From positions 1-64,000 of the forward strand of contig JALBUN010000036.1 in NCBI GenBank assembly GCA_025174535.1: a stretch of 64,000 bases of DNA. The letters run 5' to 3'. Below are positions 36,338 through 59,730 of the stretch, piece after piece; the first letter of the stretch is position 1, and each line of letters opens with the position of its first letter. Below the pieces are notes generated by a model that ran no database searches, was not told the origin of the DNA, and worked only from the letters and a program-made list of their open reading frames with translations. The stretch is from Cantharellus purpuraceus. Its lineage: Eukaryota > Basidiomycota > Agaricomycetes > Cantharellales > Hydnaceae. The position numbers were made by a program, and so were the translations under genes.

Positions 36338-36681
36338 GTTCTATCCCTGACTCTGATCCTATTATTCCACATCATTGTTTTATTATGAATTCACAGAGAA
36401 AAGTCACAAGTCTACCTGACCTCTGAAAAACCTCACTCCAACCCACTTTTTCTCCTTCAAATTGCAAGTCAAAACTTCCACTATTCTCAAATTCATTCTG
36501 AAATATTACAATCAAAATCAAAGTCATTTTTTTAGTTATACATCATGCTTCCTTTTTCCCTTCCCCTTGTCTACCTCAGCCTCTGTCTCTGACCTGTCTC
36601 TGACTCATCGTCACTCTCCACATCCAACACCCAATCCTTCTCATCCCCCATGTCTGAATCCTCATCTAGGGGGACCATGAA
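36338..36681 (-). pseudogene. Gyp-B 3' region, end of antisense gene
   Basis: Matches 55,769-56,064 of Gyp-D: intergenic AT-rich DNA, then the C-terminal codons of the antisense gene (read leftward; acidic residues then a basic end). Broken at ATGAA (36677-36681) by Ret-H and continued at 44432. Confidence 0.7.
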
Positions 36682-36951
36682 TGTAAGTACCCAAGGTACT
36701 TAATTACCATAGTATATAAGTATAATTGATATATACAGCATTCTCTTAAGGAACATTGTCCTCTTGGTAGATGTATGTGCCCATAGGGTGCATATGTATA
36801 GTTATTATGTAAGCCAGTGGACCCAGTATATGTGTGGATCCACTTATAGTAGATAGAACTTAGTTAACTACAACACTGTACAAACACATCACCCAACCAA
36901 TATACTTGGTTGAGTTCTGTGCAATGGTATGAACTAAGACACCCATTTACA
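36682..36951 (+). repeat. Left LTR of Ret-H, 270 bp
   Basis: TGTAAGTACC ... CCCATTTACA. Contains hairpin AAGTACC-CAA-GGTACTT at 36685-36701 and ACCAA-TATAC-TTGGT near 36896-36910, and a TATATAAG box near 36,713. Differs from the right LTR at a modest number of positions. Confidence 0.9.
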
Positions 36952-37529
36952 CTTTTTTGAACTTCCAAAGGAAGAATCAAGTGATTCTTTCTCATTATTG
37001 AAGTTTTCTAGTCAATACTAGAAAACCAGCTATTGCTGGTGTACAGATGTATATCAACCCCCCCAGTCGCTCATTTAAGTGAGCAACTAGTAGACTAACT
37101 TAGTTAGTCTACAAAGATAGAAGAAAAGAGTCATCATAATGATGACTCGCAGTAGAGTGAGTTGTGCTGGCAGCACCCAGGACATCATAAATGATGAATG
37201 GCAGCACATAGCCAGTAGCAGAAGCTCCCGTGAAGGGGAGCTAGACCCTAGAGAAGTCACAGGGACTTCTTGTAAGGAAGACTCTAGAAGAGAGTTGCCG
37301 CAATTGTGAGATCACACAGATGATCACACAATAGATCATCTGTCAAACAAGAACCCTTCATCAAGTGGTTCTTTGATTAGAGAAGAAAGGAGGAGACAGT
37401 CATTAACTGTCTCCAATGTTTCTAAAGGAAAGGAACATGCTCAATATATGAGCATGTAGAAGTAGCAATACTTCTACTAGGGAATCATGCAGCACAGAGC
37501 AGCATGAAACCCACAGGTCAATTGCAAGA
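36952..37529 (+). repeat. Ret-H leader: consecutive hairpins
   Basis: About 580 bp without a long frame, made of adjacent inverted repeats. Examples: GTAGACTAAC-TTA-GTTAGTCTAC (37090-37112), GAGTCATCAT-A-ATGATGACTC (37128-37148), GGAGACAGT-catta-ACTGTCTCC (37392-37414), ACATGCTCA-atata-TGAGCATGT (37435-37457), GTAGAAGTA-GCAA-TACTTCTAC (37456-37477). Spacers between stems are often under 15 nt. No primer-binding site complementary to a known tRNA end was recognised after the LTR. Confidence 0.85.
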
Positions 37530-39225
37530 TTGACCAAACAACTCATGCATAATCAACATGAGATGAAGAGCATTAGTGAAGCTAGTGCTCAGGTAGCTAA
37601 GATGGCTGCTGAAGCAGGGCATGCTGCCACTACTATGGGGCAGCAAATAGCAGAGCTAGGAATGATGTTAAAATTGCTCCAAGAGAACTCTGAGCAATGC
37701 AAGTCATGTTGCCAAAGATCAGATTCTACAAGAATCTGAATCCAGAGAGTCTGGATCTCCCCAGGGTGAGAGGATCCAACCGAATGATCAGTTAGACAGA
37801 GGAAATGAAATTCCCCTAATGGAGGGAATCAGAGACCCAGTAATCCCTGTGAGGCAAGGATTACTGATCCAGATTGAAGAGGAAACTCCTCAATCTATGG
37901 CAAAGGAGCTCAATCAAGAGATCGAGCTATGGAAATTACAAGAAGTTGAGGCTTCTCATAAACACAGGTTAGCCCTCAAATGGAAGGCTAAACATGCAGA
38001 GCAGGAGCTCAGCCAGCTGTTTAGAGAGCAGCGGCCCCAGCAAGAGCTCAATGTGGCTGTCGATTTAAACCAACAGTTGCAACATGCACTGAACAGTTAT
38101 CAGTGTGTACAAGTGGTGGGCCTTTCAGGAGACACCCACCATGAGCAACAAGATACCCCAATGGGTACCTCAAGAAGATGTTCCCCATAACAGGGAACAA
38201 TCAGTGCCATTGACCCTAGAAGGTCAAGGCATACCAGATCAATTAGACACAATTGATCCTATCAATGGTATTACTCACATGGTGCAAGTAGCCATAGTCA
38301 ATAATAGAGATACAGACCCAGAGAAGTCTGTACTTGCCAAGGTGGGCATTAAAGTATCACCTCCTGAGCAATATGCAGGAGGTGCAGATCTCAAAGAGTT
38401 TGAGATCTTTGTAGCAGGTATGCTACAATGGCTGAAGATGAATAACCTCCTAGGGCCATCAAGTACAAAGTTTCAACTATTGTACTTAGGCACTCGCCTT
38501 AAAGGCAAGGCCCAGGAATGGTTCTACAGGAATGTAGAACACTACAACAGGGCAGTCCAAGACTGGACCCTGGAAACTGCAATCCAAGAATTGCAGCATA
38601 GATTCCTACACACCCTGATGCATCATCATGCATCAGATAAATTTGACTCTGTAATACAGGGTCAAAGGACCATTCATGAATTAATGAACAACCTAGATAA
38701 GTATGCAGGTCACATGATAATGCCACCAGATGCATACACATACAGGAAGAGGTTTGTAACTGCAATGTGTGAACCTCTGAGATAAGAAGTCCTCAAGAAG
38801 GGCTTCAATGCTGAGTTTAGCAGTATCAAGCAGTTGTATGGAATGGCTCAAATGATAGAGGAAGCAACATGATACCACCATGGTATGCAACACCCAGAGA
38901 ACATGACTAATGCATCCTCCTCAACCCATAGACCAGTAGTCAATAGAACTACTGGTATGATGAATACAGGGAGTCGACCCATGCCCCATGGATGTGTGTA
39001 TATGGCTCCCAACACATACTCACAACAAGTGAGTGCATCAAGGCTGGAACCCCATAATGGAAGCTCTGGGTCCAATTCCAACAATTACCCCTTTAAGGGT
39101 AATTATCAATTGAAGCTACCAGCACATGTGAGTGGTGATCGATCAAACAACATTACCAGTAACATTGTGTGCTACAAATGTGGCCAGACAGGTCACATGT
39201 GACCCAGCTGCCCCAAACTAAAGGG
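37530..39225 (+). pseudogene. Ret-H gag with zinc knuckle
   Basis: Three overlapping frames (37530-37739, 37819-38190, 38105-38785 with 38885-39202) together look like one gag. The N-terminus is helical; a gag domain lies at 38,340-38,780 (PPEQYAGGADLKEFEIFVAG, GTRLKGKAQEWFY). The CCHC knuckle CYKCGQTGHM.PSC near 39,170-39,213 has TGA in place of an Arg codon. Frameshifts near 37,745 and 38,150 and stops near 38,784 and 38,870 break it. Perfect hairpins run through it, for example 37838-37866, 38358-38384, 38386-38408, 38409-38428, 38521-38540, 38615-38636. Confidence 0.7.
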
Positions 39226-39639
39226 CAATGTTAAGCTCAGCTGTGGTCTGAAAGAACATGTCCTCACACATAGTGGAGGACAATGTAGATGGATGATCCC
39301 AAGGACCATCTAGAGGAAAAAATACCAGCTATAGAAGTAGCTGATGAATGGGATGAGGAAGTTGCCCCATACAAATGGGACGACCAAGATGATGCCCCCA
39401 AAAAGGAGGCTACACCAATGTATTGCTCTAATGCAATACAAATTTGACCCAATGATCAAATTCCACCGAAACACACCTATGCAGTGCATTTCTGTAGTGC
39501 AACAAGATTCCCAACAAGCAGGGAATCACAACAGCTACATATAGCTGCTGTCAGCATTGACAGATCAGCCAAACCTATGTATAATCATAGGAGCCGATAG
39601 AAGTCAACAGTGTGACCTGATAGACTGTACATAGACAAT

Positions 39640-39870
39640 AAAACAATCTCTGGGTATTGGGAGATTGGTGGAACACTTGCTCACTGTCTATTAGACAGTG
39701 GGAGCAAGGGGATAATGATATCCCCTGAATTCACATGCATGACAGGTATGAAAACCTTCATGCTAGAGCAACCCATCACACTGCAATTAGCATGCATTGG
39801 GAGCAGGGGTACCATAAATTATGATACTCACACTACCATTTGCGCTAAACTCCAACATAAGCTCAACAAT
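39640..39870 (+). pseudogene. Ret-H protease remnant
   Basis: A frame reading GGTLAHCLLDSGSKGIMISP gives the retropepsin D-S-G motif at about 39,696. It is followed by about 40 residues of protease-like sequence and then lost. Two hairpins lie on the active-site codons: CACTGTCT-ATT-AGACAGTG (39682-39700) and GGGGATA-atga-TATCCCC (39708-39725). The RT that should follow is absent. Confidence 0.55.
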
Positions 39871-39949
39871 GGGGTTTACTCTATTTGAGCTTAACCACAG
39901 GTATATGCCTAGAATAGGCATGCCCATGAACAATGACAACAAGTTCAAG

Positions 39950-40370
39950 GGTGTCAAATGATTCACACAGCAGGCTCAAATGAACCTGCTAGCAGCGCAC
40001 AATGTGATTATAGAAAGTCATGTCGTTCAGACATTTCATGCCAATAAGAAATGTCAGGAAGGTTCAACCTTCCAGAGGTGACAAAGTCTACCTCTCAACA
40101 AAAAACTTGACTCTACCTAAGGGTAGGACCAGCAAACTAGTGCCCAAGTATATTGGGCCCTATAAAGTAATCGAAGCCCATAATAAAGCTTCAATGGTGA
40201 CACTGGAACTGCCACCAGAACTGACTAGTAGGCACATTATGCCTACATTCCATGTCAGTCTCATTCAACCGTATGTGCTGAATGATGAGATGAGATTCCC
40301 AAAATGGGAAGCAAAGTCATTTTATGACTTTGGGAACAATGACAAGCAGGAGTGGCTCATTGATGGATAA
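39950..40370 (+). pseudogene. Ret-H integrase C-terminal domain
   Basis: From 40020 the frame reads RGDKVYLSTKNLTLPKGR, LVPKYIGPYKVIEA and PTFHVSLIQPYV, the GPY/F-type integrase tail of Gypsy elements, to a stop at 40370. The catalytic core is missing, so an internal deletion joined protease to integrase tail. Although the protein sequence is conserved, its DNA is full of hairpins: 40031-40054, 40057-40073, 40074-40095, 40228-40246, 40296-40310 and AAAGTCAT-TTT-ATGACTTT at 40313-40331. Confidence 0.75.
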
Positions 40371-40882
40371 GCAATAAAGAAATTGAATTTCAAGTTCTAT
40401 AGATGTTGGGAGATGTCACCTGGGAACCTTACACATTGTAAGGACCTAGAAGCTCTAGACGATTATTTGGAGCTTTGAGGGGTGACTCAAGTGCAAGAAC
40501 TACCTCATAGATGGTAGTTCTCAGAGAGACAGAGCTGCAAAGATCTAATGGGGCTCAAGGGGGAGAAGTGGACCTACCAATAAAGGTAGCTCCTAGTGGG
40601 ATGCAACAAAGAGCTACCATCAATGACAGTAGCTCAATGAGGGGAGGAGGGACTACCTCAATTAATGGTAGTTCCTAGATAAGGATAGAGCTACCATAAC
40701 AACAGGCAGCTCAATGGTAGAAAAAACTTCTCCCATAGGGGGCAGTTCACCATCATGCTACTTATAGTAGCATGAAAGGGGTAAGTGATAATTAATTGCA
40801 TTACACCCATGTGACATAGTCACTGGAAAAATTCTCAATAAAGAATTTTTGAGCTCAGCCATAAAAGGCTAGCAGTGTTTCT
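40371..40882 (+). repeat. Ret-H spacer of hairpins and AGCTACC motifs
   Basis: No long frame. Many inverted pairs built on AGAACTACC/GGTAGTTCT and GAGCTAC/GTAGCTC recur between 40,490 and 40,700, suggesting local duplication of hairpins. CATGCTAC-ttata-GTAGCATG lies near 40,755 and AAAAATTCT-caata-AAGAATTTTT near 40,830. Possibly a structured RNA region between two coding units. Confidence 0.6.
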
Positions 40883-42010
40883 TTGAACCACCACAACCCC
40901 CCCTCCATCAAAATGTTATCCCTCAGAAGGGAGGTGATGGATGCTCAAGATGAGCATCCAATGGAAGTTGAACAAACTTCCACAGTGGCAGTACCTGCAA
41001 TGAGTGCTGCAGATATGATCAGAGGTCATCAAGATGAGATGACCTGGAAAATCAGCGGATGGCATGGTGGTGCTGCCATCCATCACCCTCCATCACCCTC
41101 ATGGGTGCAACAAGTGCAACACATATGTATCACACTTAATCAAGGCCCAAAATGGAGGCCAACTATATCTTTCCACCACTTTGGTAGAAAGAGCATTAAG
41201 AGTTGCATGGCTGTGACTTATACATGACATTGAAGATGATGTCATGACACCTTATCGTGAAGACTATGATAAGATGTACAAAGATAACTTGGACCTGTTT
41301 GTGCAGGTCCAAGAACTCAAAGGACTTCTCAACAATGAGAAGTCTGAAGTAACTTGTCTCAGAGACAAGTTAAAAACACTGAAGGAGGCTGCTGATAGAG
41401 CATCTTCTACATTCAAAACCAAGCTCACGACAGTGCACTTGGCCCCAGTAGCATTGCTATCATGTGCTACAGCAGGCAAATCATTGCCTGCCATTATGCC
41501 ATCACAACCTGTGGCTTCATCGTCACAGGAAATGATTGATCTCACCAAAGAGAATGATCTCCTGAGCAAATTGCCTTGGGTCAACCCTCGAGAGTCAAGA
41601 TTGGGACAACACCAATCCAATCTGGGAGGGATATGACCATGATCATGGTCTCCTCCTGGCTAGCATTCCCAAGGGTGCTAAGCAACTGGGCAAACTTTTT
41701 GAGTTTGCCCTATCCAAAATCAAAGCTGAGATTGATCAGCTTTGAAAAGAATATATGGCTAGTGATGCCAGCTGTACCTTAAAAGACCCAGCATAGAAGA
41801 CACTGGAAGAAGCCCAGCATATGAATTATTGCAAATGCTGGGACAATTTCAGGCATGCTCTCAAGCATGCAAATGTGGGGAAATCATTCTCCAAATGGGC
41901 ACCATGGTTCATGACTGCAGCTGACCCTCCCAGAGCAGTCACTGGCCACCTGCTGTGACCTCTGGGCAAGTCTGCCCCTATCAGGGCAGACTGGTTTGAC
42001 ATCTGCGATA
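40883..42010 (+). pseudogene. Ret-H extra ORF, 5' part, unknown protein
   Basis: Frames 40883-41227 and 41244-41636 plus shorter pieces up to the insertion. The product has a coiled segment (VQELKGLLNNEKSEVTCLRD) and later KSFSKWAPWFMTAADPP. No family recognised. It lies behind the integrase tail, so it is an accessory gene of the element. Three stems of 9-10 bp follow each other at 41288-41313, 41323-41344 and 41351-41371 inside the coiled segment. Broken by frameshifts, and at 42,010 by the P-insert. Confidence 0.5.
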
Positions 42011-43256
42011 TGGTGTCAGTTCACTTATGGAATAGATCCTATAAGCCTGCATGCAACGGTCCTAGCAAACAGACAGTGTGTAATGCAGTTGTTCAGCACA
42101 CCAAAGAACAATCGGGTCGAGGGGTAGGGGCAGCACTGAGTAACAGAAAGTGGAATAGTGCTCTGTGGTTGGAGGAGGATGGGGAGCGAAAAGGACAGCC
42201 CAGATGGTTGATCGTGCTCTGTGACTGGATGACAATGGAGAGCCCGGTTGGGAGGTATGTGAAAGCTGGTTTCAGGAGAAGCAACCTCTCAGTGGTGGAG
42301 GGAAATCTGATCATTGAACCAAGGTGCTTTGTCTCAGTGTAGAGATGATGGATTGTGATATAGAGATGATATAGAGTGTAGAGCGTAGACTTAGAGCGTG
42401 GACTTTGACTTTAGAGTGTTGGCTGAAAACTTGTTAATTGATCTCAAAGGCAAAAACTAGCGCCCTTTTATATACAAATCCCCAGGGCACAACGACACAA
42501 TATGAGGAGCAAATGATGCGATATGATGCAAGAAATGCTGATCAAGCCAGCTGATGAAGCGAGTGAAGTTGAACTACTAATGGGGAAATCATGGAGAAAT
42601 GAAGCGACAGATAGGGGTAATCTTTGTAAGAATAGGGGGTGATGAGTAATAAAAGAACCAGAAATAGAACAAGGATGAGTAAGTCGTGTATGAATGAATT
42701 AAAAGATGAAACAGGGGTGAGTCATATAAAAGAACAATAGAAACATCCACCAATACCATCTTCCCTACGGCTCCGAAGGTAAATTGACCCTGAGTCACAT
42801 GAGGACTTCAGTCAGCATCCACAACAAATACTCCTTATTGTCTTAGTGATACGTCTCCATATGGTATCCTGTTCCAAGGATATTCGGTCCCTTTGCCTGA
42901 CACGATGTAACCTGAGTTGGATTGAAGTGGGAGGATAGGTCAGTGATGGCGACTGAAATTCTACCTCACATTCAACTCTTCTATCTGTGTTATGATATAG
43001 AGGCAAAATGCCAAGGAATGTATATGGTTCAATGGAATTGTGAAAGAATATAGGATCACCAATGACATAAGAGAGACATGGTGGGGATCTTGGACGTTGA
43101 AAGAGTTTGGGAAGTATTTTGACATGTGGAGGTGGCTTAACATGCCTGTGGAGCTCAGCGTATTTTTGATAGTCGTCTGTGTCCAGAGACCAGTGTGACA
43201 TAGACACTGGTGGAGTTGGACTGTCAGAGTGTTTCGATGTACGTCCTCAATGCATC
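42011..43256 (-). mobile_element. P-insert relative within Ret-H
   Basis: Closely matches 8786-10207 but lacks about 200 bp (corresponding to roughly 9,960-10,150), so the P-ORF (42812-43207 here) has lost its N-terminal third. The P repeat with TATA-like box near 42,466-42,474 occupies its left half. It contains none of the dense hairpins of Ret-H, which marks its borders. I did not find a matching target duplication. Confidence 0.65.
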
Positions 43257-44086
43257 CTGGCTTGTCAATGGACACTCTGGAGTTTGTATCGCTCCATAAA
43301 AAGGCATTGGCCATGCCATTTGCAGAATGGACTGTACCAATGTGCAGAGTCATCAAAAGAATGACTCTGCTGGCTCGCGCTGATAACACACGTCTTATCA
43401 TCACTCTACCAACCACACTGGTAGACACACTTGCCCTCATACAGGGGTGGCAAGTAAACCCTAATGGGGTCCCCCTGGCCATCTGACAGGAGTCAGATGG
43501 TACTATGAACTTGTCCAATGTGGACATCTGGATGTGGCTGCAAAAGGCCACTCCCAAGAAGGGTTCTTCTGCATTCAAGAAGAACCTCTGGACTATGTTC
43601 CAGAATCCCAGCCACTGGGAATTATTGACCAGTGGCCAAAAGTTCTCACCAACTCTTGGTGACACCTTTTGCACTTCAGTCACTGGAGTGTATGATTGGG
43701 GGAATTGCTCCCCTGAAGAACATACTGAATTAGAGCTTGCACTCTGGTTTGGGCAATTGGGAGGCATCACCCTCAATCGTGCTGCTATATTAGAGGAGTT
43801 TGCTAAACACATTGCCTCTGGAGCAGCTTTTAACCAGCCCACTAGGGTTGGTAAGCAAAAGCAGGAGACTCAGGGAGTCTCCCAAGCAGCTCATAAGGCT
43901 GCTAAATGCTCTCTTGCTAAGCATTTAGGTCACGATCAACTTAATTGTGAACTCAATCAGGATGCTGTAGCAATTGCATCCTCATCCATTCAAGTGGATG
44001 AGGATACCACAACCACATTGGGGATGACTGAGAGCCATCCTCCTCTGGAACCATATGAACAAGACAACCATATGGACACTGGCTAG
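43257..44086 (+). pseudogene. Ret-H extra ORF, 3' part
   Basis: The frame from about 43265 to a stop at 43486, then 43505-44086. Includes HKKALAMPFAEWTVPMCRVI, NLSNVDIWMWLQKA and LALWFGQLGGITLNRAAILEE. Unknown family; the reading is plausible protein, not low complexity. Hairpins: GCAGAGTCAT-caaaaga-ATGACTCTGC (43344-43370), CCATCTGAC-agga-GTCAGATGG (43479-43500), GGTTCTTCT-gcattca-AGAAGAACC (43562-43586), ATCCTCATCCA-ttcaag-TGGATGAGGAT (43978-44005). Confidence 0.5.
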
Positions 44087-44148
44087 TCAGAACAGCTTCA
44101 TAAGGAGCTGGATGATTAAGAATTACTGAATGAGAATGTGTCTCATTC

Positions 44149-44161
44149 AAAAAGGAGAGGG
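44149..44161 (+). promoter_or_regulatory. Polypurine tract of Ret-H
   Basis: AAAAAGGAGAGGG directly before the right LTR TGTAAG at 44162. It primes plus-strand DNA synthesis in LTR elements and fixes Ret-H as plus-strand. Confidence 0.8.
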
Positions 44162-44431
44162 TGTAAGTACCCAAGGTACTTACTTACTATAGTATATAAG
44201 TATAATTGATATATGCAGCATTCCCTTAAGGAATGTTGTCCTCTTGATAGATGTATGCACCTATAGGGTGCATATGTATAGTTATTATGTAAGCCAGTGG
44301 ACCCAGTATATGTGTGGGTCCACTTATAGTAGATAGAACTTAGTTAACTACCACACTGTACAAACACATCACCCAACCAATATACTTAGTTGAGTCCTGT
44401 GCAACAATGTGAACTAAGACACCCATTTACA
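44162..44431 (+). repeat. Right LTR of Ret-H, 270 bp
   Basis: Same length and ends as the left LTR; followed by ATGAA, the second copy of the target duplication. Hairpin AAGTACC-CAA-GGTACTT is retained. Confidence 0.9.
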
Positions 44432-45517
44432 ATGAATTTCTGCAGTTGATGCAACTCAGCAGTCCATTGACCCTCCAGAACCTCCTTCCATTTCATCGTC
44501 TTGACCAAATCCACTAACAACCCCTCTATTCACTGGAGATGCTCTGACTGAAGGTTAATCAGCTGGATAAGCTGGCCCACAGTACTGTTGGGCATGAAGA
44601 CATGCCTCATACCTGCACCAGTCATTGCTCCCTCTGATCCAACACTGCTACCTCCAGCTGCCACAGCACCCATTGCTATCTGCTGACTTTTGGTCAGACA
44701 ACCTTCTGATTCTTTCTCTGCCCCTCCTTGTACCACTGGTCAGGGCTTGGCACTCTGACTTCAGAGATTGAACTTGCCATCAATCCTACACCCTCCTTTC
44801 CAACCCCAACAATGATCACAAGACCAAAGTCAGTGAGTCAGACCAGTGGGGCATATACACTCCACACCCACATCATGGCACAAGTTGCATATTACACCAG
44901 GTCTGCTGAATGGCTCTGTTAGAGCCAGAGGGTGGTCTGCTCCTTTTTGACATGGCCTCCAAGTTTCTCTCTCCTCCTCCTTGTCCTACTGCTCTGCTGT
45001 AGCCTTCTCCATCTCACACTTATGAAGCTGGATTGCTGACCTAGCGACATACACCTCCTTCTTATGAGTTGCTAATACACAATCCTCTGCCTTGTGCCAT
45101 ATGACCCTCTGATCTGCCTCCCACTTCTCTGTATCAGCACTCAGGTATGCCTTCAACAAGAAGACCATGACCTTGAGATTCTTCTTGGTAGTAGCAGCAT
45201 ATAGCTCTGTCCATTTGTGAGCTTCAACCACAGCTACCCAGGCCATCTCCTTGTAACAATTTGAGGCTGGGTCAGGCTCCATATCTGTCCCAACATCCAC
45301 ACCCACCTCAGGCTCTGCATTTGTGTCAAGCTCCATGTCCACATTGGGATCCACCTTCACTTCCACCTTCTCCACCTCTGCTGCATCATCCTCTTCAGCT
45401 GCACCCACTGCAAACAATGGTCATGGTTGCAAACAAACCGGCAAGTCTACTGGTGGGGTAGATGTCAGATGGGTCAACTCCATCCATGTGACCAAGATAA
45501 TGGTGACCTTGAAGGTC
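44432..45517 (-). pseudogene. Gyp-B antisense gene, remainder
   Basis: Read leftward from 45,517: acidic block (VDPNVDMELDTNAEPEVGVD), the coiled region with KEMAWVAVVEA, the Cys-cluster segment near 44,790-44,920 (degraded), then the TGA at 44740-44742 in context TGA-CCA-G and the second frame (MVQGGAEKESEG) to 44,530. Matches Gyp-D 56,060-57,130. Arg codons are largely lost. It is cut at 45517 by LTR-T. Confidence 0.75.
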
Positions 45518-46639
45518 TGTATGGGAACCACCTTTTCCCTATCAAATCCTATTTATGCAGCACTAATGTGCTATACTTTGCTTTTCCATTCCTAAATATC
45601 AGCATATATTTGGTGCTTGTACCTGGAATGGACTTATCAAATTCTCTATTTTTTCATATTTTTTTGGGAATATTCCATGCAGAACTCAGCCCAGAATGAT
45701 TTATTTCTGCTGTGCTACAGTTGTGGACCCATAGGTGCCCACAAACCTTCACACAGCCGGCTCTCCCCCTTTGGACCAGGCATTTGGCCTGAATTCAAGC
45801 TCAGATGTCTATGATCAATAAATATTCTGTAACTTGACAACCACAGCCTCTCAGGGCACTATTTTCCATGGAGATCATCATCTGAGATGTGGCTATCCAT
45901 GACTGTCCAAACCAGTGCAGAAAACAGGGTGGACACCCTTCTTTTTGCCTGATCAGTGCCTAGTTCAGGGATCAGATCAGGTGATTGCCTTGGAATATTC
46001 TACCCCTTTCTAACATTCTAGCTGTTTCCTTCTATTATTAGATAGAACATTGCAGAACCATTATTCAGCTCCTGATCAGTGTTAGCACAGTGATCAGAAC
46101 CTGTGATTGGCTTGGAATATTCTACCCCTTTCCTCCACCTTCCACAACCTTTCAGTAGTTTCCATCTATTAATAGGTAGAATATTCCAGAAGCATTAGTC
46201 AGCCCCTGTAAATACAATATATAAGGAGGCCATTCTGCCTCTGAAAGAATAACATATCATCATATTCTACCCATCTTCTGCACCCCAGTGTGACTGGAGT
46301 GACATACAGTGTCATCCTCTATCTCAGTAACTGTTGATTACCAGTTCAAGGATCTTTTACAGTTGTGTAACTGTACTTGATTGCACTTGAAGTAGTGATA
46401 TTCCTGCTTTGGGTGTGAGTGTAGCATCTGCCTCACATGACTATGAATCTACAGGATGAGATTGTCTGCCAATAGTCCTGTCATTAGTGCTCTTGTTTAA
46501 GTAACTAGTGTGCACTGCCTTTGCAGAGCATTAGAAGCTTGAACTCGTGTGAAGCAGTTGCTAGACTACTTCACACATTGCTGTTACTCACTTCAGAGTG
46601 TCACTGGTTGGATGGTTGGATTCATCCACCTACTTCCTC
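45518..46639 (+). mobile_element. LTR-T copy, left part
   Basis: Begins TGTATGGGAACC after AGGTC and follows 52546-53680 closely up to CCACCTACTTCCTC, where Gyp-C is inserted. It resumes at 63173 (TCCTCTAGCC) and, after the MITE, at 63840. Contains TATATAAGG near 46,220. Its end lies beyond 64000. Confidence 0.8.
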
Positions 46640-47011
46640 TGTGAGGGCGACGCTGATGACAAGGCCACAACAACAAGATACTCAATAGATGAGAGCTGAT
46701 AAGAGATAATGCCAGCTGGTACAGCAGATATCCTCAGTCTATACAGCTGTTTCTGATAAATACATGGGACTTACCTGGTACAGCAGATATCCTCAGAGAT
46801 TAAGCTGAGGGGATCACACTGCACCAAGGCAAGTCTTTATACTAAATGATGGAGACGGATAGGAGAACCAAGATAGGGGAATAATAGAGAGGAAGGATAG
46901 GGGAAGTGATAGGGGCAATGAAATAGGGGAGATGCACCCTGACAGGCTGTGCTGATAGGGGCGTCAAGAGAAAATACTAAAAATAGAATATGACTCATTT
47001 GAACCCTGACA
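46640..47011 (-). repeat. 3' LTR of Gyp-C, 372 bp
   Basis: TGTGAGGGCG ... ACCCTGACA on the plus strand. Nearly identical to 62801-63172 over the whole length, so Gyp-C inserted recently compared with Gyp-B. Confidence 0.9.
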
Positions 47012-47024
47012 TCACCCCCCTCTT
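47012..47024 (-). promoter_or_regulatory. Polypurine tract of Gyp-C
   Basis: On the minus strand AAGAGGGGGGTGA abuts the 3' LTR start TGTCAGGG. Confirms minus-strand orientation. Confidence 0.75.
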
Positions 47025-47064
47025 AATGCATGTTGTCTCGATATGCACTATTGTCCCGTCCATC

Positions 47065-47502
47065 TCAAGAGAGACACACCCTGAAGCACTCTGCAAGGTC
47101 CCTTCTCACTCTCTGCCAAAGTAGAGCCCATGATGAGTGTTGATGGTGATTCTTCTCTGCCTTGGGGTAAAGTGGGATGGTGAACTCTCTGGGGGATATG
47201 AGATCGTCTGTGCTGAAAACCGCTCCAAGTATCATCTCCCCTCCCTCATAGGTGACTTTACCGGCGAGCCCTTGGAAGGTGTATGGTATGTCATAGTTGC
47301 TGATGAATAGAGGGTCCCCAATGTAGTGTGTCTGGTGTCTTGATGGATTACAATGCCAGAAGGGGAAATGAACTTGTGGAGGTGGAGATGGGAGGTTATA
47401 ATCCTCTACAGCACATGCAGTATCCCTTGAGTCAACTGACCAAGTGATTGATGGGTAGGAACGGAGTGAGCATAGAGGGGTGGATTCAGACTGGTAAGGC
47501 AT
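47065..47502 (-). CDS. P-ORF homologue, accessory gene of Gyp-C, 145 aa
   Basis: Intact frame between the chromodomain and the 3' LTR. Core HYIGDPLFISNYDIPYTFQG matches VIGDPIFFHNSIEPYTFLG in the P-ORF at 9573-10145, and both end in a Trp/Arg/Cys-rich helix (WQRVRRDLAECFRVCLS). Small beta-rich domain likely; no signal peptide or membrane segment. Its position is that of env or accessory genes in other retroelements. Function unknown. It stays open while gag and pol are broken. Confidence 0.6.
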   Translation of the reverse strand: MPYQSESTPLCSLRSYPSITWSVDSRDTACAVEDYNLPSPPPQVHFPFWHCNPSRHQTHYIGDPLFISNYDIPYTFQGLAGKVTYEGGEMILGAVFSTDDLISPREFTIPLYPKAEKNHHQHSSWALLWQRVRRDLAECFRVCLS

Positions 47503-47608
47503 GGTGGGTTGGGTAGTGAACGGTAATGGTTTTACTGAGGAAGGGGAAGTGGATTCACTGGCTTATATATGGTTAGTGGAATTTCGGCATGGATGAATTT
47601 GGTGAGTG

Positions 47609-48966
47609 CTAAGCTTCACTGTGCCTATTCTGCGGCTCTGAAATGTGTCCAATACCACATGTTGGGTTCCTGCCAGCTGTCCAATCAAAGAGGACCTGTT
47701 TGGGAGGTTCTGTGAAGTTCTCAAAGCGTCTGAAGGGAAGAGCCGCATAGGTGGCTGCTGAAATACACCTTGGGGCTTCAGGATTCTCCCAATGGAAGTC
47801 TGCAATGCACCTTCTAGCCCCACTGGCATCCTTAGCTGGGATCCAGAGGTCATCAGCAGCTCCATAGCCCTTCCAATGCACCAGGTATTCCAGTCTTCCT
47901 CGGAAAACTCTGCTGTCAAGGATCTTCTCAACTTCGTATTCCTGTACTCCATCTCGAATGACTGGAGGTGGTGGAGGAGATGACTGGCGTTCAGGGATGG
48001 GATCCTTTTCATAAGGACGGAGTAAGACAACAGAGAACACTGGATGAGTGTGACCAAAGATTGGAGGAAGTTGTCGGCCATAGGCATTTTGCAAGACCAC
48101 CTTATTAATCACATATGGTCCTAACCATTTGTGATCAAGTTTCTTGGTTGGATGGGTGGTGGTGATATTTTGTGCATTGAGCCAGACCTTGTCACCAAGC
48201 TTGTATACTGGGGCTGCTTGCCGATGGGCATCATAGAATCATGCCATATCATCTGCTGCCTTTTCCAGGGTGGAGCGAGCCTCAGTGGTGGCCATCTCCA
48301 TATGCTCAGTGAATTCTTCCAGTGCTTCAAGTCATGTCTCTCAGATTGGCTCTAGCCCAAGCCTTGGGTGTTGGCCTGTATCAAGCATGAAGGGGGTTGA
48401 TTGCATGGAGGAGTGGATGCAGTTGTTGTATGTGAATTCAGCAAGAGGAACCCACTCAATCCAGTCATCCTAGCACTGATTGACAAAAAGCCTCAAGTAT
48501 TGTTCAATTTCTTGATTGACCCTTTCTGTCTGACCATCAGTTTGTGGATGGTATGCTGTGGATGCTACAACCTTGATCCCCAAAAGCTTATTGAGCTCAC
48601 GCATAAATTGAGAGACAAACTGGGTGCTGTGGTCACTGATGATCTCCTCAGGAAAGCTGTGGTGTTTCCACACATGGTCTCGGAAAAGTCATGCAACTCC
48701 TATGGGGTTGATGTCAGAGGTGGTAGGGATAACATGTGCTCATTTGGAAAGATGGTCCACAACGACAAGGAGTGCATCATAGCCATGACTGATCAGTAGC
48801 TCTACAATAAGGTCAACAGATATCACTTGCCACCTCTGATCTGGGACACGATTAGGCAGGAGTTTATCCATAGGAGGAGCAGGGAAAGTTTTTGTCTGAT
48901 TGCAGAGGTCACATCCCTTAACGTATTTGGCAATGTATTGTCCAAATCCAGGCCACCAGTAGCTGC
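47609..48966 (-). pseudogene. Gyp-C integrase core and chromodomain
   Basis: From the right: CDLC of the zinc finger near 48,905, core motifs SVDLIVELL (Asp), SDHSTQF (Asp) and GQTERVNQEIEQYL (Glu), GDKVWLNAQN of the integrase tail, then the chromodomain YEVEKILDSRVF ... LEYLVHWKGYG at 47,840-47,940. Stops near 48,475, 48,365 and 48,240 interrupt. The frame at 47609-48112 is open. Confidence 0.85.
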
Positions 48967-48971
48967 GGGAT

Positions 48972-49485
48972 TGTTATGACTATATTCATTAACGCCCAGA
49001 TCCCCATCCGATCCCCTCAGATCCCCGCGCATATGGAATCTATACTCCATTTGGAAACCGCTATGTCTCCATTTTCCTGTCCGATTGTCACCGCCGATTC
49101 CGCCCATCCGTCTCCAGTTCCGATTGATGCATCAGCATCACCATAGGAACCCAGACATCCATCCCCATCAGACTCGGACATACTCATGTAAGGCCGTCAG
49201 CCTTGGAGACCCATCACCGGAGTAATTATTATTAGATTTCAAATATGTATTTAAGTTGCCAACTGGGGACTCCATTCCCCAGTTTGAATATCGAATCACG
49301 CCTAGCTCCTAAGTCTGATCCTAACTCTGTAAGTCATACTCCATCTCCAAAATCTCGGACACTGGTATTAGTGAGGGTGCAGCACATAAGCTGAAGCCAA
49401 GTCCGTTCCAACCCCCACGACGTGCTCCGACTCCGACCCAACCTCCGACCCAAACTCCGACCCCAATCGGACCTAGTGCGTAACA
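48972..49485 (+). repeat. Left LTR of Gyp-D, 514 bp
   Basis: TGTTATGACT ... GTGCGTAACA. A TATTTAA box near 49,248. Only 32 nt separate its end from the gag start, so no room for a long leader; a tRNA-type primer site was not recognised. Confidence 0.9.
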
Positions 49486-49517
49486 GTATATTCGAACTGC
49501 CATACTCACTCCTACCA

Positions 49518-50659
49518 ATGCCACGATCCACTGCCAATTCTGAATGCACACGAATCGTTGAGGGACCCGCCCCCAGCATCGACACCATCCCTGAGGTCAT
49601 CGAAGAACCAACGGACCACATAGAGGCCGTCAATGAAGAAGACAACACCCCGCCCTCTCCAAATCTGGCACAAGCCATCTCCCTGCTCACCAGCAGCATC
49701 CATAACTCACAAGCCCCTAAGTCCCGGACCAAGGTCCGAGAACCTGACCCATTTGATGGCTCTGATCCACGCAAACTCCAGCCGTTCTTGGTGCAATGCC
49801 GGTTGAATTTCCACAATCACCCCGACGCATTCACATCCGATCGGGCGAAGGTTACCTTCGCCATATCCTATCTCAAGGGCACCGCACTGGACTACTTCGA
49901 GCCAGCACTCATGGACGACTCCAATGACCCCATATGGTCAGAGGACTACTCTGACTTCATCTCCGAACTTCGGACCAATTTCGGTCCTTACAACCCCAAG
50001 GCCGATGCCGAGAATGAACTTGATTGACTTCAGATGAAGGAAAATCACAAAATCGCAAAATACATTGTGAGTTTCCAGCAGCTAGCTCTGAAAGTCCAAT
50101 GGGGCGATGCCGCACTCCGACGCCAATTTTACATTGGACTCCCATCCCGTATCAAGGACGAGATATCAGGCGTCAGTAAGCTGGATACTTTGGCTACCCT
50201 CCGCAAGCTCGCCCAATCCATCGACGCCCGTTATTGGGAACATCAATCTGAAGTCTCCCGCAAAAATTCGGCCAACAACAAATTGGACAAATCATTGGAC
50301 AAGACCCCAAAGTCCAACAAAGGGTCTGATAAGCAGGCCACCGCCAATTCAGGCCAGAAGTCAAACACTGGTAATGCTGCCACTTCCAGTTCCGGTCAGA
50401 ACAATTCGGCACCAGCAATAACTCTGGAGCTCACAAGAATACTCCGGACCTCTCCACCAAGCTGGGAAAGGCTGGAAAACTTACCCAGCAGGAACACCAG
50501 CGCCGCATGGACAACAACCTCTGTCTGTTCTGCGGAAAGCCTGGTCACCAAGCCAAGGATTGCAACAAGGCAACCTCGTCTGCAGCAAAGGCAAAGGGCC
50601 ATGCCACCAACGCCATGACGGACAAGTCCAATGCTAAAGCAACGGACCAAAAAAAATAG
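49518..50659 (+). pseudogene. Gyp-D gag
   Basis: Starts MPRSTANSEC at 49518. Gag domain (FLVQCRLNFHNHPD, SYLKGTALDYFEPAL), an Asn/Ser/Lys-rich linker and CCHC knuckle CLFCGKPGHQAKDC near 50,530. TGA at 50025-50027 replaces an Arg/Gln codon, and one base is missing near 50,408, shifting the knuckle. The ancestral stop TAG at 50657-50659 follows an A8 run. Confidence 0.85.
50649..50659 (+). promoter_or_regulatory. Gag-pol -1 frameshift site of Gyp-D
   Basis: Eight A followed by TAG. Pol continues in the -1 frame (ATA GTA AGC). Same as at 11575-11584 and 30390-30400. Confidence 0.65.
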
Positions 50660-52545
50660 TAAGCAGTCCTATAGCCTCCGTATGGGCTGAGGGCTGCGTT
50701 GGTACTCCCCGTACGGCAAACAAGGTCCACCTGAACGCATCTGCTCTTTCCCACTCCAACTCCCTTACCCTCCTCATCCACTCCGACTCTATTCCTGATA
50801 CCACTATTCATGCCTTAATTGACTCCAGTTCTACTCATTGTTTCCTCGATTTCTCTTTTTCCGATTTACATAAACTCCATACATACACCATAACTCCGAT
50901 ATCACTCCGATTATTTGACGGCACTACTAATGCTGTTATTTCACGAGCTATAGATTTGTCTATCCGTTTTTCTGTCAGAGAAATCCAGAACCTTACATTC
51001 TATGTTACTCCGCTTGACTCCAGCTGTTCTGTGGTTCTCGGACATAACTGGCTCACCCGCTACAATCTGTTGATTGACTGGGCATTGGGTCATATCACAT
51101 TCCGTTCTCCAGCACAGGCTGTGTCATCCCCGACATCACCAGCAACTTTAGGTGCGAAATTATCTTCCGCCTCCGCTGACTCCACTCCGATAGATACTCC
51201 GTCTACCCCTCCGTTCATATCGATGGTGGACGCTATGGTCTTCACCAGACTAAGCAAACTGGACGGTTCTCACACATTCCAGGTTCACCTCTCCGATCCA
51301 ATATTCCTCGCTGCTCGTTCCACCCGATCCACTCCACCAGACCTCTCTATGGTTCCCAAGGAGTATCATGAGTTCGCCGACATGTTCAGCAAGTCTAAAG
51401 CCAACTCCCTAGCAGAACACCAACCATACAATCTCAAGATCGAACTGGACGACAACTCCACCCCTCCGCTTGGCCCTATCTACTCACTATCACAAAAAGA
51501 GCTATTGGCCCTCCGAACATTCATAGATGAGAACTTGGCCACAGGCTTCATCCGCCCATCCCTATCTCCTCATGGAGCTCCAGTCCTATTTGTCCGCAAA
51601 AAGGACGGATCACTCCATCTATGCGTCGACTTCCGTGGACTCAACAAAATCACCAAGAAAGACCAATACCTGATACCCCGCACTGCGAACCTACTCAAGA
51701 GTCCTTGAAAGGCTAAGATCTACTCCAAAATAGATCTCCGACATGCCTACCATCTAGTCCGTATCCGAGAAGGCAACGAATGGAAAACGACCTTCCACAC
51801 ATGATATGGATCTTTTGAGTGGTGCGTCATGCCCTTCGGTCTAACCAATGCTCTGGCCGCCTTCCAGAGGTTCATGAATGATATCTTCGCCAACCTTCTC
51901 GATGTGACTGTCCTCGTTTACTTAGACGACATTCTGGTATATTCAGACAACGAAGAAGAACATCGGACACATGTCTGAGAGGTACTCCTACATCTCTGAA
52001 AGCATGGCCTCTTCGCCTGCGCTGACAAATGCGAATTTCACTCCAACTCGGTTGAATACCTAGGCTATATCCTCTCCCCGGCAGAGTTAACAATGTCCGA
52101 TGACAAAATCAGAGCCATACAGGAATGGCCAGAACCTCGGAAAGTCAAGGACATACAGTCCTTCCTCGGGTTTGCCAACTTCTACCGCCGCTTTATTCAC
52201 GGCTACTCCGATATCACTGTTCCGCTCACCCGACTCACTAGGAAGGGTATCCAATGGAATTTCACTGACGAATGTAGACAGAGTTTTGAGACCTTGAAAA
52301 AGGCCTTTACTTCCGCTCCGATACTGACTCATTGGATTCCAGATGTTCCCATCCTATTAGAGACCGACGCCTCCGACTATGCACTTGCCGCGATCCTGTC
52401 CATCATCTCCCCGGACGATGGACAAGTCCACCTGATCGCTTTTCACTCGCGTACATTCACACCCCCCAAACTGAACTATGACGTCCATGACAAAGAGCTC
52501 CTTGCCATATATGAAGCCTTCCGGATATGGAGACACTACCTTGAG
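50657..52545 (+). pseudogene. Gyp-D pol, first part: protease, RT, RNase H
   Basis: Protease with [11 protein letters not shown] near 50,820; conserved [11 protein letters not shown] from 51,345 with [15 protein letters not shown] and [11 protein letters not shown] near 51,920, catalytic Asp pair intact. RNase [14 protein letters not shown] near 52,360. In-frame TGA codons at 51706-51708, about 51,803 and about 51,976 stand at former Arg codons. Cut at TTGAG (52541-52545). Confidence 0.88.
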
Positions 52546-53969
52546 TGTATGGGAACCACCTTTTCCCTATCAAATTCCATTTATGCAGCACCAATGTGCT
52601 ATTCTTTGCTTTTCCATTCCTAAATATCAGCATATATTTGATGCTTGTACCTGGAATGGACTTATTCAAATATTCTCTATTTTTCCATATTTTTTTGGGA
52701 ATATTCCATGCAGAACTCAGCTCAGAATGATTTATTTCTGCTGTGCTACAGTTGTGGACCCATAGGTGCCCACAAACCTTCGCACAGCTGGCTCTCCCCT
52801 TTTGGACCAGGCATTTGGCCTGAATTCAAGCTCAGATGTCTCTGATCAATAAATATTCTCTAACTTAACAACCACAGCCTCTCAGGGCACTATTTTCCAT
52901 GCAGATCATCACCTGAGATGTGGCTATCCATGGCTGTCCAAACCAGTGCAGAAAACAGGGTGGACACCCTTCTTTTTGCCTGATCAGTGCCTAGCTCAGG
53001 GATCAGATCAGCTGATGGGTGATCAAATCAGGTGATTGCCTTGGAATATTCTACCCCTTTCCATAACATTCTAGCTGTTTCCTTCTATTATTAGATAGAA
53101 CTTTCCAGAACCATTATTCAGCTCCTGATCAGTGTTAGTGCTGTGATCAGATCCTGTGATTGGCTTGGAATATTCTACCCCTTTCTTCCACCTTCCACAA
53201 CCTTCCAGTAGTTTCCATCTATTAATAGGTAGAATATTCCAGAAGCATTAGTCAGCCCCTGTAAATACAATATATAAGGAGGCCATTCTGCCTCTGAAAG
53301 AATAACATATCATCATATTCTACCCATCTTCTGCACACCAGTGTGACTAGAGTGACATACAGTGTCATCCTCTATCTCAGTAACTGTTGATTACCAGTTC
53401 AAGGATCTTTTACAGTTGTGTAACTGTACTTGATTGCACTTGATATTCCTGCTTTGGGCATGAGTGTAGTATCTGCCTCACGTGACTACGAATCTACAGG
53501 GTGAGATTGTCTGTCGATAGTCCTGCCATTAGTGCTCTTGTTTAAGTAACTAGTGTGTACTGCCTTTGCAGAGCATTAGAAGCTTGAACTCGTGTGAAGC
53601 AGTTGCTAGACTACTTCACACATCGCTGTTACCCACTTCTGAGTGCCACTGGTTGGACAGTTGGATTCATCCACCTACTTCCTTTAGCCTCTAAGTGCAT
53701 TCCCCTCTTTTTGGAATATCTGGACCCCTAAGCGTCCATGAACTCTAGACTCTGGAAGTCTTATTCATTTCTTGCTGCTAAGAAACGTATTACCTTTCTG
53801 CGTATAGTCTGCATTGACCAATACAAAGGATTGTAACCAAAGTACAAACGTTAAATTGTTTCTGGAGTTGTGCTGCAGCAGGGTTTGATATTCTTCTCAG
53901 CTGTTCATTCACAGAATTGTGGTGATTTAGAGTTTGCCCTAACACCATAATTTTGCGGGTTCCAAAACA
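52546..53969 (+). mobile_element. LTR-T solo LTR, 1,424 bp
   Basis: TGTATGGGAACC ... TTCCAAAACA with TSD TTGAG at 52541-52545 and 53970-53974, in the RNase H region of Gyp-D. Reference copy for the family. TATATAAGGAGG near 53,273 may be its promoter. Several foldbacks occur (TACAGTT-gtgt-AACTGTA 53411-53428; GTGTGAAG...CTTCACAC 53592-53621). No coding content. An intact partner element is not in the window. Confidence 0.9.
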
Positions 53970-55768
53970 TTGAGGGTCCCTCCGATCTGGTAGACATCAT
54001 AACAGACCACAAGAACTTGGAATACTTCTCCACAACGAAACTGCTCACTCGGAGACAGGTCCGATGGTCCAAGTACCTATCTCAGTTCAACCTCATTATC
54101 TGTTTCCATCCTGGTTGACTCTGAGCAAAGCCTGACGTGTTAACTAGACGATGGGACGTCTACCCTAAAGAGGGAAATAGCAACTATGCCACTGTAAACC
54201 CCCACAACTTTCATCCTGTGTTTACTAACGAGCAGCTGGCATCGTCCCTACGAGCATCCACCCTCATGACTCCCACCCTCTGAGCTGTCACCATTATGGA
54301 CATCGACCAACTCCGCTCCGACATCCACTCATCACTCCGATCTGATCCTGTTGCGGTTAAACACTTGGACAACCCTTCCGATCTGAAATGGTCACTTGAC
54401 CCCGAAGGACACCTCCAACACAATGACCGGATATACATCCCCGACACCAACGGCCTCCGACTCCAAGTTTTGCAGTATTATCATGATCACCCGATCTCCG
54501 GCCACTTTGGGCAAAATCGCACACAAGGATTAATCCGATGAGACTACATATGGCCAAAAATGTGGGAATACATTCAACACTACTGTAACTCCTGCACCAC
54601 ATGTATGCGCTCAAAATCGCAAAGGCACAAACCCTACGGAACGCTCAAACAACTTCCGATCCCAGAGCAACCATGGAACTCCATCTCCATGGATTTCATA
54701 GAGAAGCTCCCCCCATCACTCGGATATGACACCATACTCGTGATTGTCGACAGGTTCACCAAACAGTTCCTATTCATTCTGACGCATGACACCATCACCT
54801 CCGCCTCACTAGCTAAATTGTTCATTCTCCACATATTCTCTAAACACGGAGTCCCATCACATGTCACGTCCGATCGGGGTTCGGAGTTTGTGTCCTCCTT
54901 CTTCCGCACATTAGGAAAGGCTCTCGACATGAAGCTCCATTTTACCTCCAGATACCACCCTGAAGGAGACGGACAAATGGAACGAATGAATCAGTCCCTG
55001 GAACAATATCTCCAAATCTATTGTAACTATCAATAAGACAACTGGGCTGGTCTACTTCCGATCGCAGAGTTTGCCTACAACAACACTCCAAATGCGACTA
55101 CCGGCATCTCTCCGTTCTTTGCTAATAAAGGCTACCATCCGAACATCTCTGTCCACCCCGAGAAGGAACTTGCCTCCACCAAAGCCCACCAATTCATAAC
55201 CGACCTCGATCAACTACACCAACATCTCCGAGAGACCATCTCCGATGCTCAGAAACAATATCAAGTCTCCGCAGACCGACACCGCATTCCGGCTCTGGAC
55301 CTGCAAATCGGAGACAAAGTATTCGTTAAGGCTGAACACTTCCGGACCACCCATCCATCAAAGAAACTCTCCGAGAAATACTTAGGTCCTTATGAGGTCA
55401 TTGCTCGCACGGGCAGCAGGTCTTTCACCCTCTGCCTCCCAGACCACTTCCGAGCAGTTCATCCAGTCTTCCATATATCAATGCTCGAACCTGCTACTAT
55501 GAACGAGATCTCCAGTCGCATGCAACCCCCACCTCCCCCGATCATCATTGAAGGAGACAATGAATATGAGATCTCGGAGATCCTGGACTTGAAGATCGAC
55601 CGTCGATACAAGTGCAAGCTCCAGTACTTAGTCAAATGGACTGGATACGAAGGCACTGATGAAGAGTCTTCATGGATCTCCGCATCCGAACTCGATCACG
55701 CATCCGAATCCATCTCCGATTTTCACTCTGCTTATCCAGACAAACCTGGCCCTCTTTTGAATCTTTAA
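53970..55768 (+). pseudogene. Gyp-D pol, second part: integrase and chromodomain
   Basis: Integrase finger YYHDHPISGHFG ... CNSCTTC (54,478-54,604); core Asp in MDFIEKLP, Asp in SDRGSEF, Glu in GQMERMNQS; tail GDKVFVKAEHF; chromodomain EYEISEILDLKID ... LQYLVKWTGYEGTDEESS (55,560-55,690). Stops near 54,117, 54,283, 54,539 and 55,034 fit C-to-T changes. Ends LLNL at 55768. Confidence 0.88.
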
Positions 55769-58289: not shown

Positions 58290-58294
58290 GGGAT

Positions 58295-59725: not shown

Positions 59726-59730
59726 TTCTT

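What the first reader, a model, noticed from the sequence alone, without database searches (positions are those of the whole stretch)
36682..44431. Retroelement built from consecutive perfect hairpins, including its coding regions
Seen directly: Ret-H contains a perfect inverted repeat with a short loop about every 20-40 bases along most of its length. Samples with coordinates: 36685-36701 (7 bp), 37090-37112 (10), 37128-37148 (10), 37392-37414 (9), 37435-37457 (9), 37456-37477 (9), 37838-37866 (9), 38358-38384 (9), 38386-38408 (10), 38409-38428 (8), 38521-38540 (8), 38615-38636 (9), 38932-38956 (9), 39083-39104 (8), 39419-39440 (8) abutting 39441-39462 (7), 39506-39527, 39532-39547, 39548-39563, 39682-39700 (8), 39708-39725 (7), 40313-40331 (8), 41288-41313 (10), 41323-41344 (9), 41351-41371 (10), 43344-43370 (10), 43479-43500 (9), 43978-44005 (11), 44127-44149 (9). 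A 9-bp stem at a given position and loop is expected by chance once in 4^9 tries, so the density is far beyond chance. It overlies conserved protein (zinc knuckle, protease DSG, integrase tail) and stops at the borders of the element and of the P-insert inside it. Inference: either the RNA is selected to fold into a string of stems (packaging, protection from silencing, translation control) or replication repeatedly creates foldbacks by template switching. I know of no described LTR element like this.
Basis: partly seen in the sequence, partly recalled or inferred. Interest (0 to 1): 0.9.

Follow-up and report, generated by a model that had tools for sequence, protein, structure and literature searches.

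The report
Hairpin-riddled Ty3-like retrotransposon family
A jumping gene of the Ty3/gypsy kind carries a short, mostly perfect, self-complementary hairpin about every 50 bases, also inside its protein-coding parts; the other elements checked in the window lack this style, and its cause is still open.

Summary
All 29 listed hairpins exist. In 36682-44431 there are 82 stems of at least 7 bp with loops of 3-12, against 5.0 in 30 dinucleotide shuffles. Six coding segments hold 36 against 4.3 after codon shuffling. The nested insert is at chance; other stretches have 0.3-1.3 per kb, the rest of the window about twice its shuffles. Ret-H is an internally deleted Ty3/gypsy LTR element with a 5-bp target duplication, one of scores of copies in this genome. 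Pol pieces from five chosen sister copies are as dense (12-15 per kb).

The hairpins have a signature: mostly perfect pairing, hard ends, stems capped at 11 bp, span 22.7 +/- 3.4 nt, longer stems with shorter loops. G-U is not preferred over its mirror A-C, and copies show almost no compensatory change beyond CpG decay. One copy carries a fresh 28-pair foldback (one mismatch), and three to four loops are inverted.

I favour birth of perfect foldbacks by short-range template switching in the element's replication, filtered by protein constraint. RNA-level selection is the main rival. Against mine: only 1 of 415 stems is new in the family, and no A/T donor-arm skew. DNA of relatives in other species would decide it; I reached none.

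The parts
36682..44431 (+). Ret-H: LTR retrotransposon copy of the hairpin-rich Ty3/gypsy family, internally deleted (RT and integrase core missing)
   Evidence: LTR pair and self-comparison, TSD, Pfam, 82 hairpins
36682..36951 (+). 5' LTR (270 bp, starts TG, ends CA; 93.3% identical to 3' LTR; carries 3 hairpins)
44162..44431 (+). 3' LTR (4 hairpins), preceded by a purine-rich tract
36677..36681 (+). left copy of 5-bp target-site duplication ATGAA
44432..44436 (+). right copy of 5-bp target-site duplication ATGAA
36952..37671 (+). leader between 5' LTR and gag, dense in hairpins
37672..38190 (+). gag N-terminal part (its peptide resembles the start of P0001 and P0027 by eye)
38093..38785 (+). 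gag capsid region (Ty3_capsid PF19259, E 1.1e-5, 25.4 bits, below the 29.1-bit cut-off); 56 relatives in metagenomes
39170..39211 (+). zinc knuckle CX2CX4HX4C with one in-frame stop, as it stands
   Evidence: sequence; motif recognised from memory
39682..39726 (+). protease active-site region (LLDSGS) overlain by two adjacent hairpins (39682-39700, 39707-39726)
   Evidence: motif recognised from memory
40077..40277 (+). integrase C-terminal SH3 (SH3_Tf2-1, PF24626, E 2.7e-15)
40865..44086 (+). third coding region, interrupted by the insert; open frames 40865-41227, 41217-41636 (coiled-coil-like by eye) and 43487-44086; no Pfam family above cut-off
42010..43267 (.). P-insert: later nested insertion related to 8784-9963; 1 hairpin vs 0.6 expected, so the hairpin style stops at its borders
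37090..37148 (+). example hairpins with 11-bp (37090-37112) and 10-bp (37128-37148) stems and 1-nt loops
38358..38428 (+). three consecutive hairpins inside conserved gag codons (9, 10, 8 bp)
38932..38956 (+). hairpin where sister copy L028 has an inverted loop and a foldback of 28 positions (27 paired, one mismatch)
37435..37457 (+). hairpin whose 3' arm in the window copy differs in sequence and length from the 14 sister copies that cover it and is the exact complement of its own, CpG-decayed 5' arm (template-switch-like)

Best explanation
Ret-H belongs to a Ty3/gypsy family whose sequence is filled with short perfect foldbacks. The best-supported mechanism is mutational. During the element's replication (most likely reverse transcription, because neither the nested insert nor the other elements checked show it), the polymerase now and then switches for about 7-11 nt onto the opposite arm of a small hairpin and back. 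In one step this writes a perfect inverted repeat within a span of about 23 nt. Protein selection then keeps those events that cost little, largely through synonymous positions, and the stems decay by ordinary substitution. Shown: density, perfection, hard ends, fixed span, 11-bp cap, family-wide sharing, element-restricted borders, one fresh foldback and loop inversions. Inferred: that the family's own reverse transcription is the step, that the rate was high enough in the past, and that the span reflects the geometry of that enzyme.
For: Stems are perfect and end abruptly: beyond the last pair, Watson-Crick pairing is at chance (19-28% at +2 to +8 in the window copy), and G-U is 10% at the first failed pair. 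At family level (28 segments) stems of 7, 8, 9, 10, 11 and >=12 pairs number 24, 18, 13, 12, 7 and 0, against 9.4, 2.9, 1.1, 0.25, 0 and 0.05 in column-shuffled controls. Span is 22.7 +/- 3.4 nt over 84 hairpins, with stem and loop length negatively correlated (r -0.38; 0 of 5000 permutations as extreme), the opposite of what a stability threshold gives. Stems with one mismatch exist as an apparent age series: >=9 pairs, 32 perfect vs 0.9 expected and 31 with one mismatch vs 13.6. The excess mismatches are mostly transitions, with A-C (10 vs 1.95) at least as common as G-U (5 vs 1.2), as neutral decay predicts and RNA selection does not. L028 has, at 38932-38956, an inverted loop and a foldback of 28 positions with one mismatch. 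Loops are exactly reverse-complemented at 4 sites, while the control transforms gave 0 (reverse) and 1 (complement; the same ambiguous 3-nt site) among 1051 hairpins over 28 segments. The window copy's hairpin at 37435 looks recopied from its decayed arm. The style is absent from the nested insert and the other stretches tested. Published template-switch work describes the same footprints, arm homogenisation and spacer inversion (PMC8604942 abstract; PMC8794818 abstract and discussion).
Against: Only 1 of 415 stems >=8 bp in the 28 segments is new; 411 have a near-equivalent in more than half of the other copies and 3 in 20-50%. So births are rare over the family's visible history, and the one fresh event is 28 positions long, not 7-11. 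The A-rich strand bias of unpaired parts is not inherited by one arm (5' arms: 201 A vs 179 T, underdispersed); 5' arms have slightly more C than G (169 vs 140; 41 vs 24 hairpins), the opposite of the G-C excess that PMC8794818 derives from one-way switching. Codon-phase counts 25:19:18 show little bias, and arm codons are not less conserved than others (0.745 vs 0.696, not significant), so no trail of protein damage is seen. G-U stems, though rarer than A-C, also exceed shuffles (7 vs 1.95 in the window copy). No data on the family's reverse transcriptase. Loop inversions can also arise after insertion by host processes.
Confidence: 0.45

Rival explanations
1. Selection on the element's RNA to fold into a string of short stems (packaging in Gag particles, protection from RNA silencing or nucleases, translation control), like genome-scale ordered RNA structure of some RNA viruses but stronger. 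The 11-bp cap would keep stems below the reach of double-stranded-RNA binding proteins (their reach is recalled).
For: Mean MFED 37% (+) and 34% (-) over 21 windows, z about -5; passages of PMC7642675 give up to 23.4% for the most structured coronavirus, measured with other software. Coding hairpins depend on codon choice: 36 vs 4.3. Arm codons are as conserved as the rest. 11-bp cap. A slight excess of exactly abutting hairpins, 9 vs 5.6 +/- 2.2, though none in the wider gap class -3 to 2 (11 vs 11.5).
Against: G-U is not favoured over its mirror A-C in stems, at edges or in variants. Longer stems have shorter loops. Of 122 two-sided cells, 120 lie at CpG-decay sites. Other gypsy copies in the window lack it. 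Both strands are equally structured.
Confidence: 0.27
2. Selection at about 23-nt scale against host small RNAs: palindromic units of small-RNA size would give guides that fold on themselves and targets that are closed.
For: Span 22.7 +/- 3.4 nt is tighter than chance combinations of stem and loop (0 of 5000). The style covers LTR, leader and coding parts.
Against: No small-RNA data. Watson-Crick perfection is not needed. Other gypsy copies in the window do without. The match to small-RNA size is recalled and may be coincidence.
Confidence: 0.1
3. Host DNA polymerases or cruciform repair made the palindromes after insertion.
For: Loop inversions and the L028 foldback could be host events.
Against: 411 of 415 stems have a near-equivalent in more than half of the other copies; the nested insert and other stretches lack them.
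Confidence: 0.05
4. Chance, base composition or codon usage.
For: None found.
Against: Dinucleotide shuffles and codon shuffles.
Confidence: 0.01

Closest known systems
Ty3/gypsy (Metaviridae) LTR retrotransposons of the Tf2-1-like SH3 integrase type
   Same: LTRs with TG...CA, 5-bp TSD, Ty3-like capsid (weak), zinc knuckle and protease motif by eye, RNase H domain in a sister copy, SH3_Tf2-1 integrase tail
   Different: 12-15 perfect short hairpins per kb in the window copy and five chosen pol segments, a third coding region without Pfam family; no such style in the other gypsy copies of the window
Coding palindromes of Nematomorpha mitochondrial genes (Mikhailov et al. 2019, PMC6649704; abstract, discussion and part 1 of 3 of results read)
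   Same: Perfect inverted repeats inside conserved protein-coding sequence; binary perfect-or-absent character, for which those authors discuss a repeat-conversion or template-switch origin
   Different: There repeats are long (at least 15 bp counted, mean 43, up to 142 bp) and mitochondrial. Here stems are capped at 11 bp, about 23 nt in span, about one per 50 nt, in a nuclear retrotransposon, and imperfect stems are in excess too
Template-switch (quasipalindrome) mutation (PMC8794818 abstract and discussion; PMC8604942 abstract)
   Same: Creates or perfects stems in one event, homogenises arms, inverts spacers; each footprint is seen at least once here
   Different: Described there for RNA genes and 39 yeast protein genes, not as the style of a whole element
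Genome-scale ordered RNA structure (GORS) of some RNA viruses (PMC3950689, PMC7642675; passages)
   Same: Many consecutive short stem-loops throughout coding regions; high MFED
   Different: MFED about 37% here vs a 3% threshold and values up to 23.4% in those passages; no G-U preference; retrotransposon, not a plus-strand RNA virus

Membership tests
Ty3/gypsy LTR retrotransposon | paired LTRs with target-site duplication | tested here: met
   270-bp LTRs 93.3% identical; ATGAA on both sides
Ty3/gypsy LTR retrotransposon | gag capsid and zinc knuckle | tested here: met
   Ty3_capsid 1.1e-5, below Pfam's cut-off in the decayed window copy, but listed as precomputed domain for 20 of the 56 relatives; knuckle read by eye
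Ty3/gypsy LTR retrotransposon | RT-RNase H before integrase | tested here: inconclusive
   RNase H domain 4.3e-14, then a weak integrase zinc domain 0.02 in L036, SH3 tail in the window; RT domain not scored, and the window copy lacks RT
GORS-type RNA structure | MFED above about 3% genome-wide | tested here: met
   mean 37% over 21 windows and 38% over 4 (+ strand)
GORS-type RNA structure | pairing acts in the RNA (G-U tolerated, strand-specific) | tested here: not met
   G-U above shuffles but not above A-C; both strands alike
Functional RNA family | compensatory substitutions | tested here: not met
   120 of 122 two-sided cells are at CpG-decay sites; copies are too recent to test older history
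Functional RNA family | match to a curated RNA family | tested here: not met
   0 Rfam matches at gathering score in 36400-44700
Template-switch palindromes | arm made complementary, or loop inverted, in a single multi-base event | tested here: met
   L028 foldback; 3 clear and 1 ambiguous loop inversion
Template-switch palindromes | frequent births in the lineage carrying them | tested here: not met
   1 of 415 stems new
Template-switch palindromes | directional donor arm | tested here: not met
   no A/T arm skew; slight C over G in 5' arms

The most novel reading that the evidence does not exclude
This element's own reverse transcription turns its genome into a chain of foldbacks of about 23 nt: a self-palindromising replicator in which short-range template switching, rather than point mutation, has been a dominant force on the sequence while the proteins were kept.
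Probability: 0.35. Interest if true: 0.9.

Novelty: new variant of a known kind. Interest (0 to 1): 0.74.

Why it matters
A coding sequence can apparently be recast over about half its length as short perfect hairpins while its proteins survive. If mutational, it would show that template switching in reverse transcription can dominate sequence evolution, giving a natural record of a process usually seen as rare. If selective, its folding energy would exceed the values I read for structured RNA viruses, and the 11-bp cap and 23-nt span would point to the host machinery being dodged. Either way the question becomes testable with DNA of related elements, small-RNA data and strain re-sequencing.

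Tried and rejected
Compensatory evolution among copies: looked for in 28 segments; two-sided cells were CpG decay in 120 of 122. Donor-arm asymmetry predicted by one-way copying: not seen for A/T; a slight C-over-G excess in 5' arms. Hairpin periodicity: best period 22 among 58 tried, not significant by my estimate. Codon phase: weak, 25:19:18 for stems >=6, 17:9:12 for >=7. Protein-level compatibility of metagenome relatives with the hairpins: a first version looked strong (1846 vs 1713 +/- 13), but after correcting for decayed residues and comparing with 14 shifted controls it was not distinguishable (0.334 vs 0.104 +/- 0.167; two controls exceeded it). Relatives' DNA: none in viral contigs or GTDB genomes, one scan each. 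A diverged sister family in the own genome: RNase H matches lie at 55% identity or more or at 28-31%, none between (150 scored of 306 candidates). Literature: (23 and 24 returned no paper) found no LTR element described as hairpin-filled in the titles and abstract starts listed; open-access papers only. A 38-bp stem in the pooled counts is in L002, outside the stretch that aligns with Ret-H, and was not used. The codon-shuffle control had one segment off frame and overlapping segments; one search repeats it (36 vs 4.3 instead of 4.0).
Full report
What is there. Every one of the 29 inverted repeats in the finding exists with a perfect stem. A systematic count in 36682-44431 (stem >=7, loop 3-12) gives 82, against 5.0 on average and at most 10 in 30 dinucleotide shuffles. 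By part, with 50 shuffles each: 36682-42009, 65 vs 3.6; 43268-44431, 16 vs 0.7; nested insert 42010-43267, 1 vs 0.6. Four other stretches have 0.3-1.3 per kb. The rest of the window has 40 vs 21.6 (1-36681) and 19 vs 12.1 (44432-64000; 20 shuffles each), so it too lies mildly above its shuffles, but at about a twelfth of the density. Codon shuffling that keeps the protein and codon usage of six segments leaves 4.3 of 36 (correcting). So codon choice carries most of it.

Anatomy. The element has 270-bp LTRs (36682-36951, 44162-44431; 93.3% identical) and a 5-bp duplication ATGAA. The capsid region matches Ty3_capsid weakly, and the tail matches SH3_Tf2-1 at 2.7e-15. A zinc knuckle (39170-39211) and a protease LLDSG motif (hairpin 39682-39700) are read by eye. 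RT and integrase core are missing from the window copy: homology of most sister loci to it stops at about 39839, and several of them go on into pol. A third coding region (40865-44086) has a coiled-coil-like part and no accepted Pfam family; two metagenome proteins match part of it (60-64% identity over 35-45%).

The family. The own genome (40.15 Mb, 50 contigs; name and lineage not given, fungal by my inference) holds scores of copies. There are 47 DNA matches to the gag segment from 40 scored of 214 candidates, 144 protein matches with a relative's gag as query, and 41 LTR matches from 40 scored of 418 candidates. The 29 sister loci have 5.4-12.5 hairpins per kb, flanks included. Pol segments that follow in L013, L020, L026 and L029 have 13-15 per kb vs about 1 shuffled; L036, with RNase H, has 12. 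Those five were chosen because they run on in the element. Of the 23 loci the other 19 range from 0.7 to 12.4 per kb, many because they run into other sequence. The RNase H search shows no close second family: identities are 55% or more, or 28-31%.

Signature of the hairpins. In the window copy stems of 7, 8, 9, 10 and 11 bp number 31, 18, 20, 11 and 1, none longer. At family level, allowing for CpG decay, stems of 7-11 number 24, 18, 13, 12 and 7 (column-shuffled controls 9.4, 2.9, 1.1, 0.25 and 0), with none of 12 or more. Five stems of 12 or more occur in the oriented loci; by position only the 13-bp stem of L028 lies in an aligned stretch. Beyond the ends pairing is at chance. Loops are in excess up to 12 nt (81 vs about 7), weakly at 13-20 (12 vs 4.8), not beyond. 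Span is 22.7 +/- 3.4 nt. Stem and loop lengths are negatively correlated, and the span is tighter than in any of 5000 permutations. A stability threshold would give the opposite correlation. Among one-mismatch stems G-U is not preferred over A-C: 7 vs 17 in the window copy (expected 1.95 and 2.15); 118 vs 183 in the pooled, not independent, copies (expected 24 and 30). Predicted folding is extreme on both strands.

Variation between copies. I used 28 segments covering 36690-39839: the window and L002-L030 without L016 (99.7% identical to L012) and L025 (99.9% identical to L024 over 3.6 kb); one largest stretch per copy, other stretches dropped. Most change at stem pairs is decay of CpG to TG or CA. 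Of 122 two-sided cells, 120 are at such sites. At other sites G-U and A-C breaks number 113 and 168 cells. CpG decay goes equally to TG (2150) and CA (2092). The copies therefore look like decayed offspring of one recent source, and the compensatory test cannot reach the time when the hairpins arose. Stem columns vary less than others at non-CpG sites (0.020 vs 0.030-0.033); I have not explained that.

Events at hairpins. Among 17 clusters of private changes, one place in L028 (two clusters, window 38941-38965) is a clear foldback: inverted loop plus copied-back flank, 27 of 28 positions paired outward from the loop. Exact loop inversion occurs at 4 sites. The control 'reverse only' gives 0 and 'complement only' gives 1, the same ambiguous 3-nt loop. 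At 37435-37457 the window copy's 3' arm differs from the 14 others shown and matches its own decayed 5' arm. Against this, of 415 stems >=8 bp in the 28 segments only one is new; 411 have a near-equivalent in more than half of the other copies.

Weighing. Perfection, hard edges, neutral-looking mismatches, fixed small span, restriction to one family, and the observed switch events favour template switching in the element's replication. The lack of A/T donor-arm skew, the rarity of births in visible history and the good conservation of arm codons leave room for selection. A protein-level test on metagenome relatives was inconclusive after controls. Papers used: PMC6649704 (abstract, discussion, part 1 of 3 of results), PMC8794818 (abstract, discussion), PMC8604942 (abstract), PMC3950689 and PMC7642675 (passages). 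None of the listings (titles and abstract starts; two searches returned none) describes an LTR element like this.

Noticed in passing
42010-43267; related to 8784-9963, with partial similarity at 23106-23621: The nested P-insert sequence also appears inside or next to other copies of the hairpin family, judged by eye from shared peptide pieces in the translations of L003, L011, L035 and L038, so it may often land in this family.
   Followed up: partly
36690-39839 and sister loci: Strong CpG loss in the copies (CpG o/e about 0.1-0.4), equal to TG and CA, which suggests host CpG methylation with deamination and not strand-biased editing of cDNA.
   Followed up: partly
36690-39839: Non-CpG variation is a third lower in stem columns (0.020) than in loops (0.033) or between hairpins (0.030); unexplained, alignment effects not excluded.
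   Followed up: no
36952-36990: No usual primer-binding site (TGG start, recalled) follows the 5' LTR, and no 6-nt or longer complement of the LTR was found there for self-priming; the priming mode is unclear.
   Followed up: partly
40865-44086: Third coding region with coiled-coil-like segment, no Pfam family above cut-off and only two metagenome relatives of its end part; also seen in L038.
   Followed up: partly
L002:557-641 (oriented locus): A 38-bp perfect stem with a 9-nt loop just upstream of the part of L002 that aligns with Ret-H; what it belongs to was not examined.
   Followed up: no
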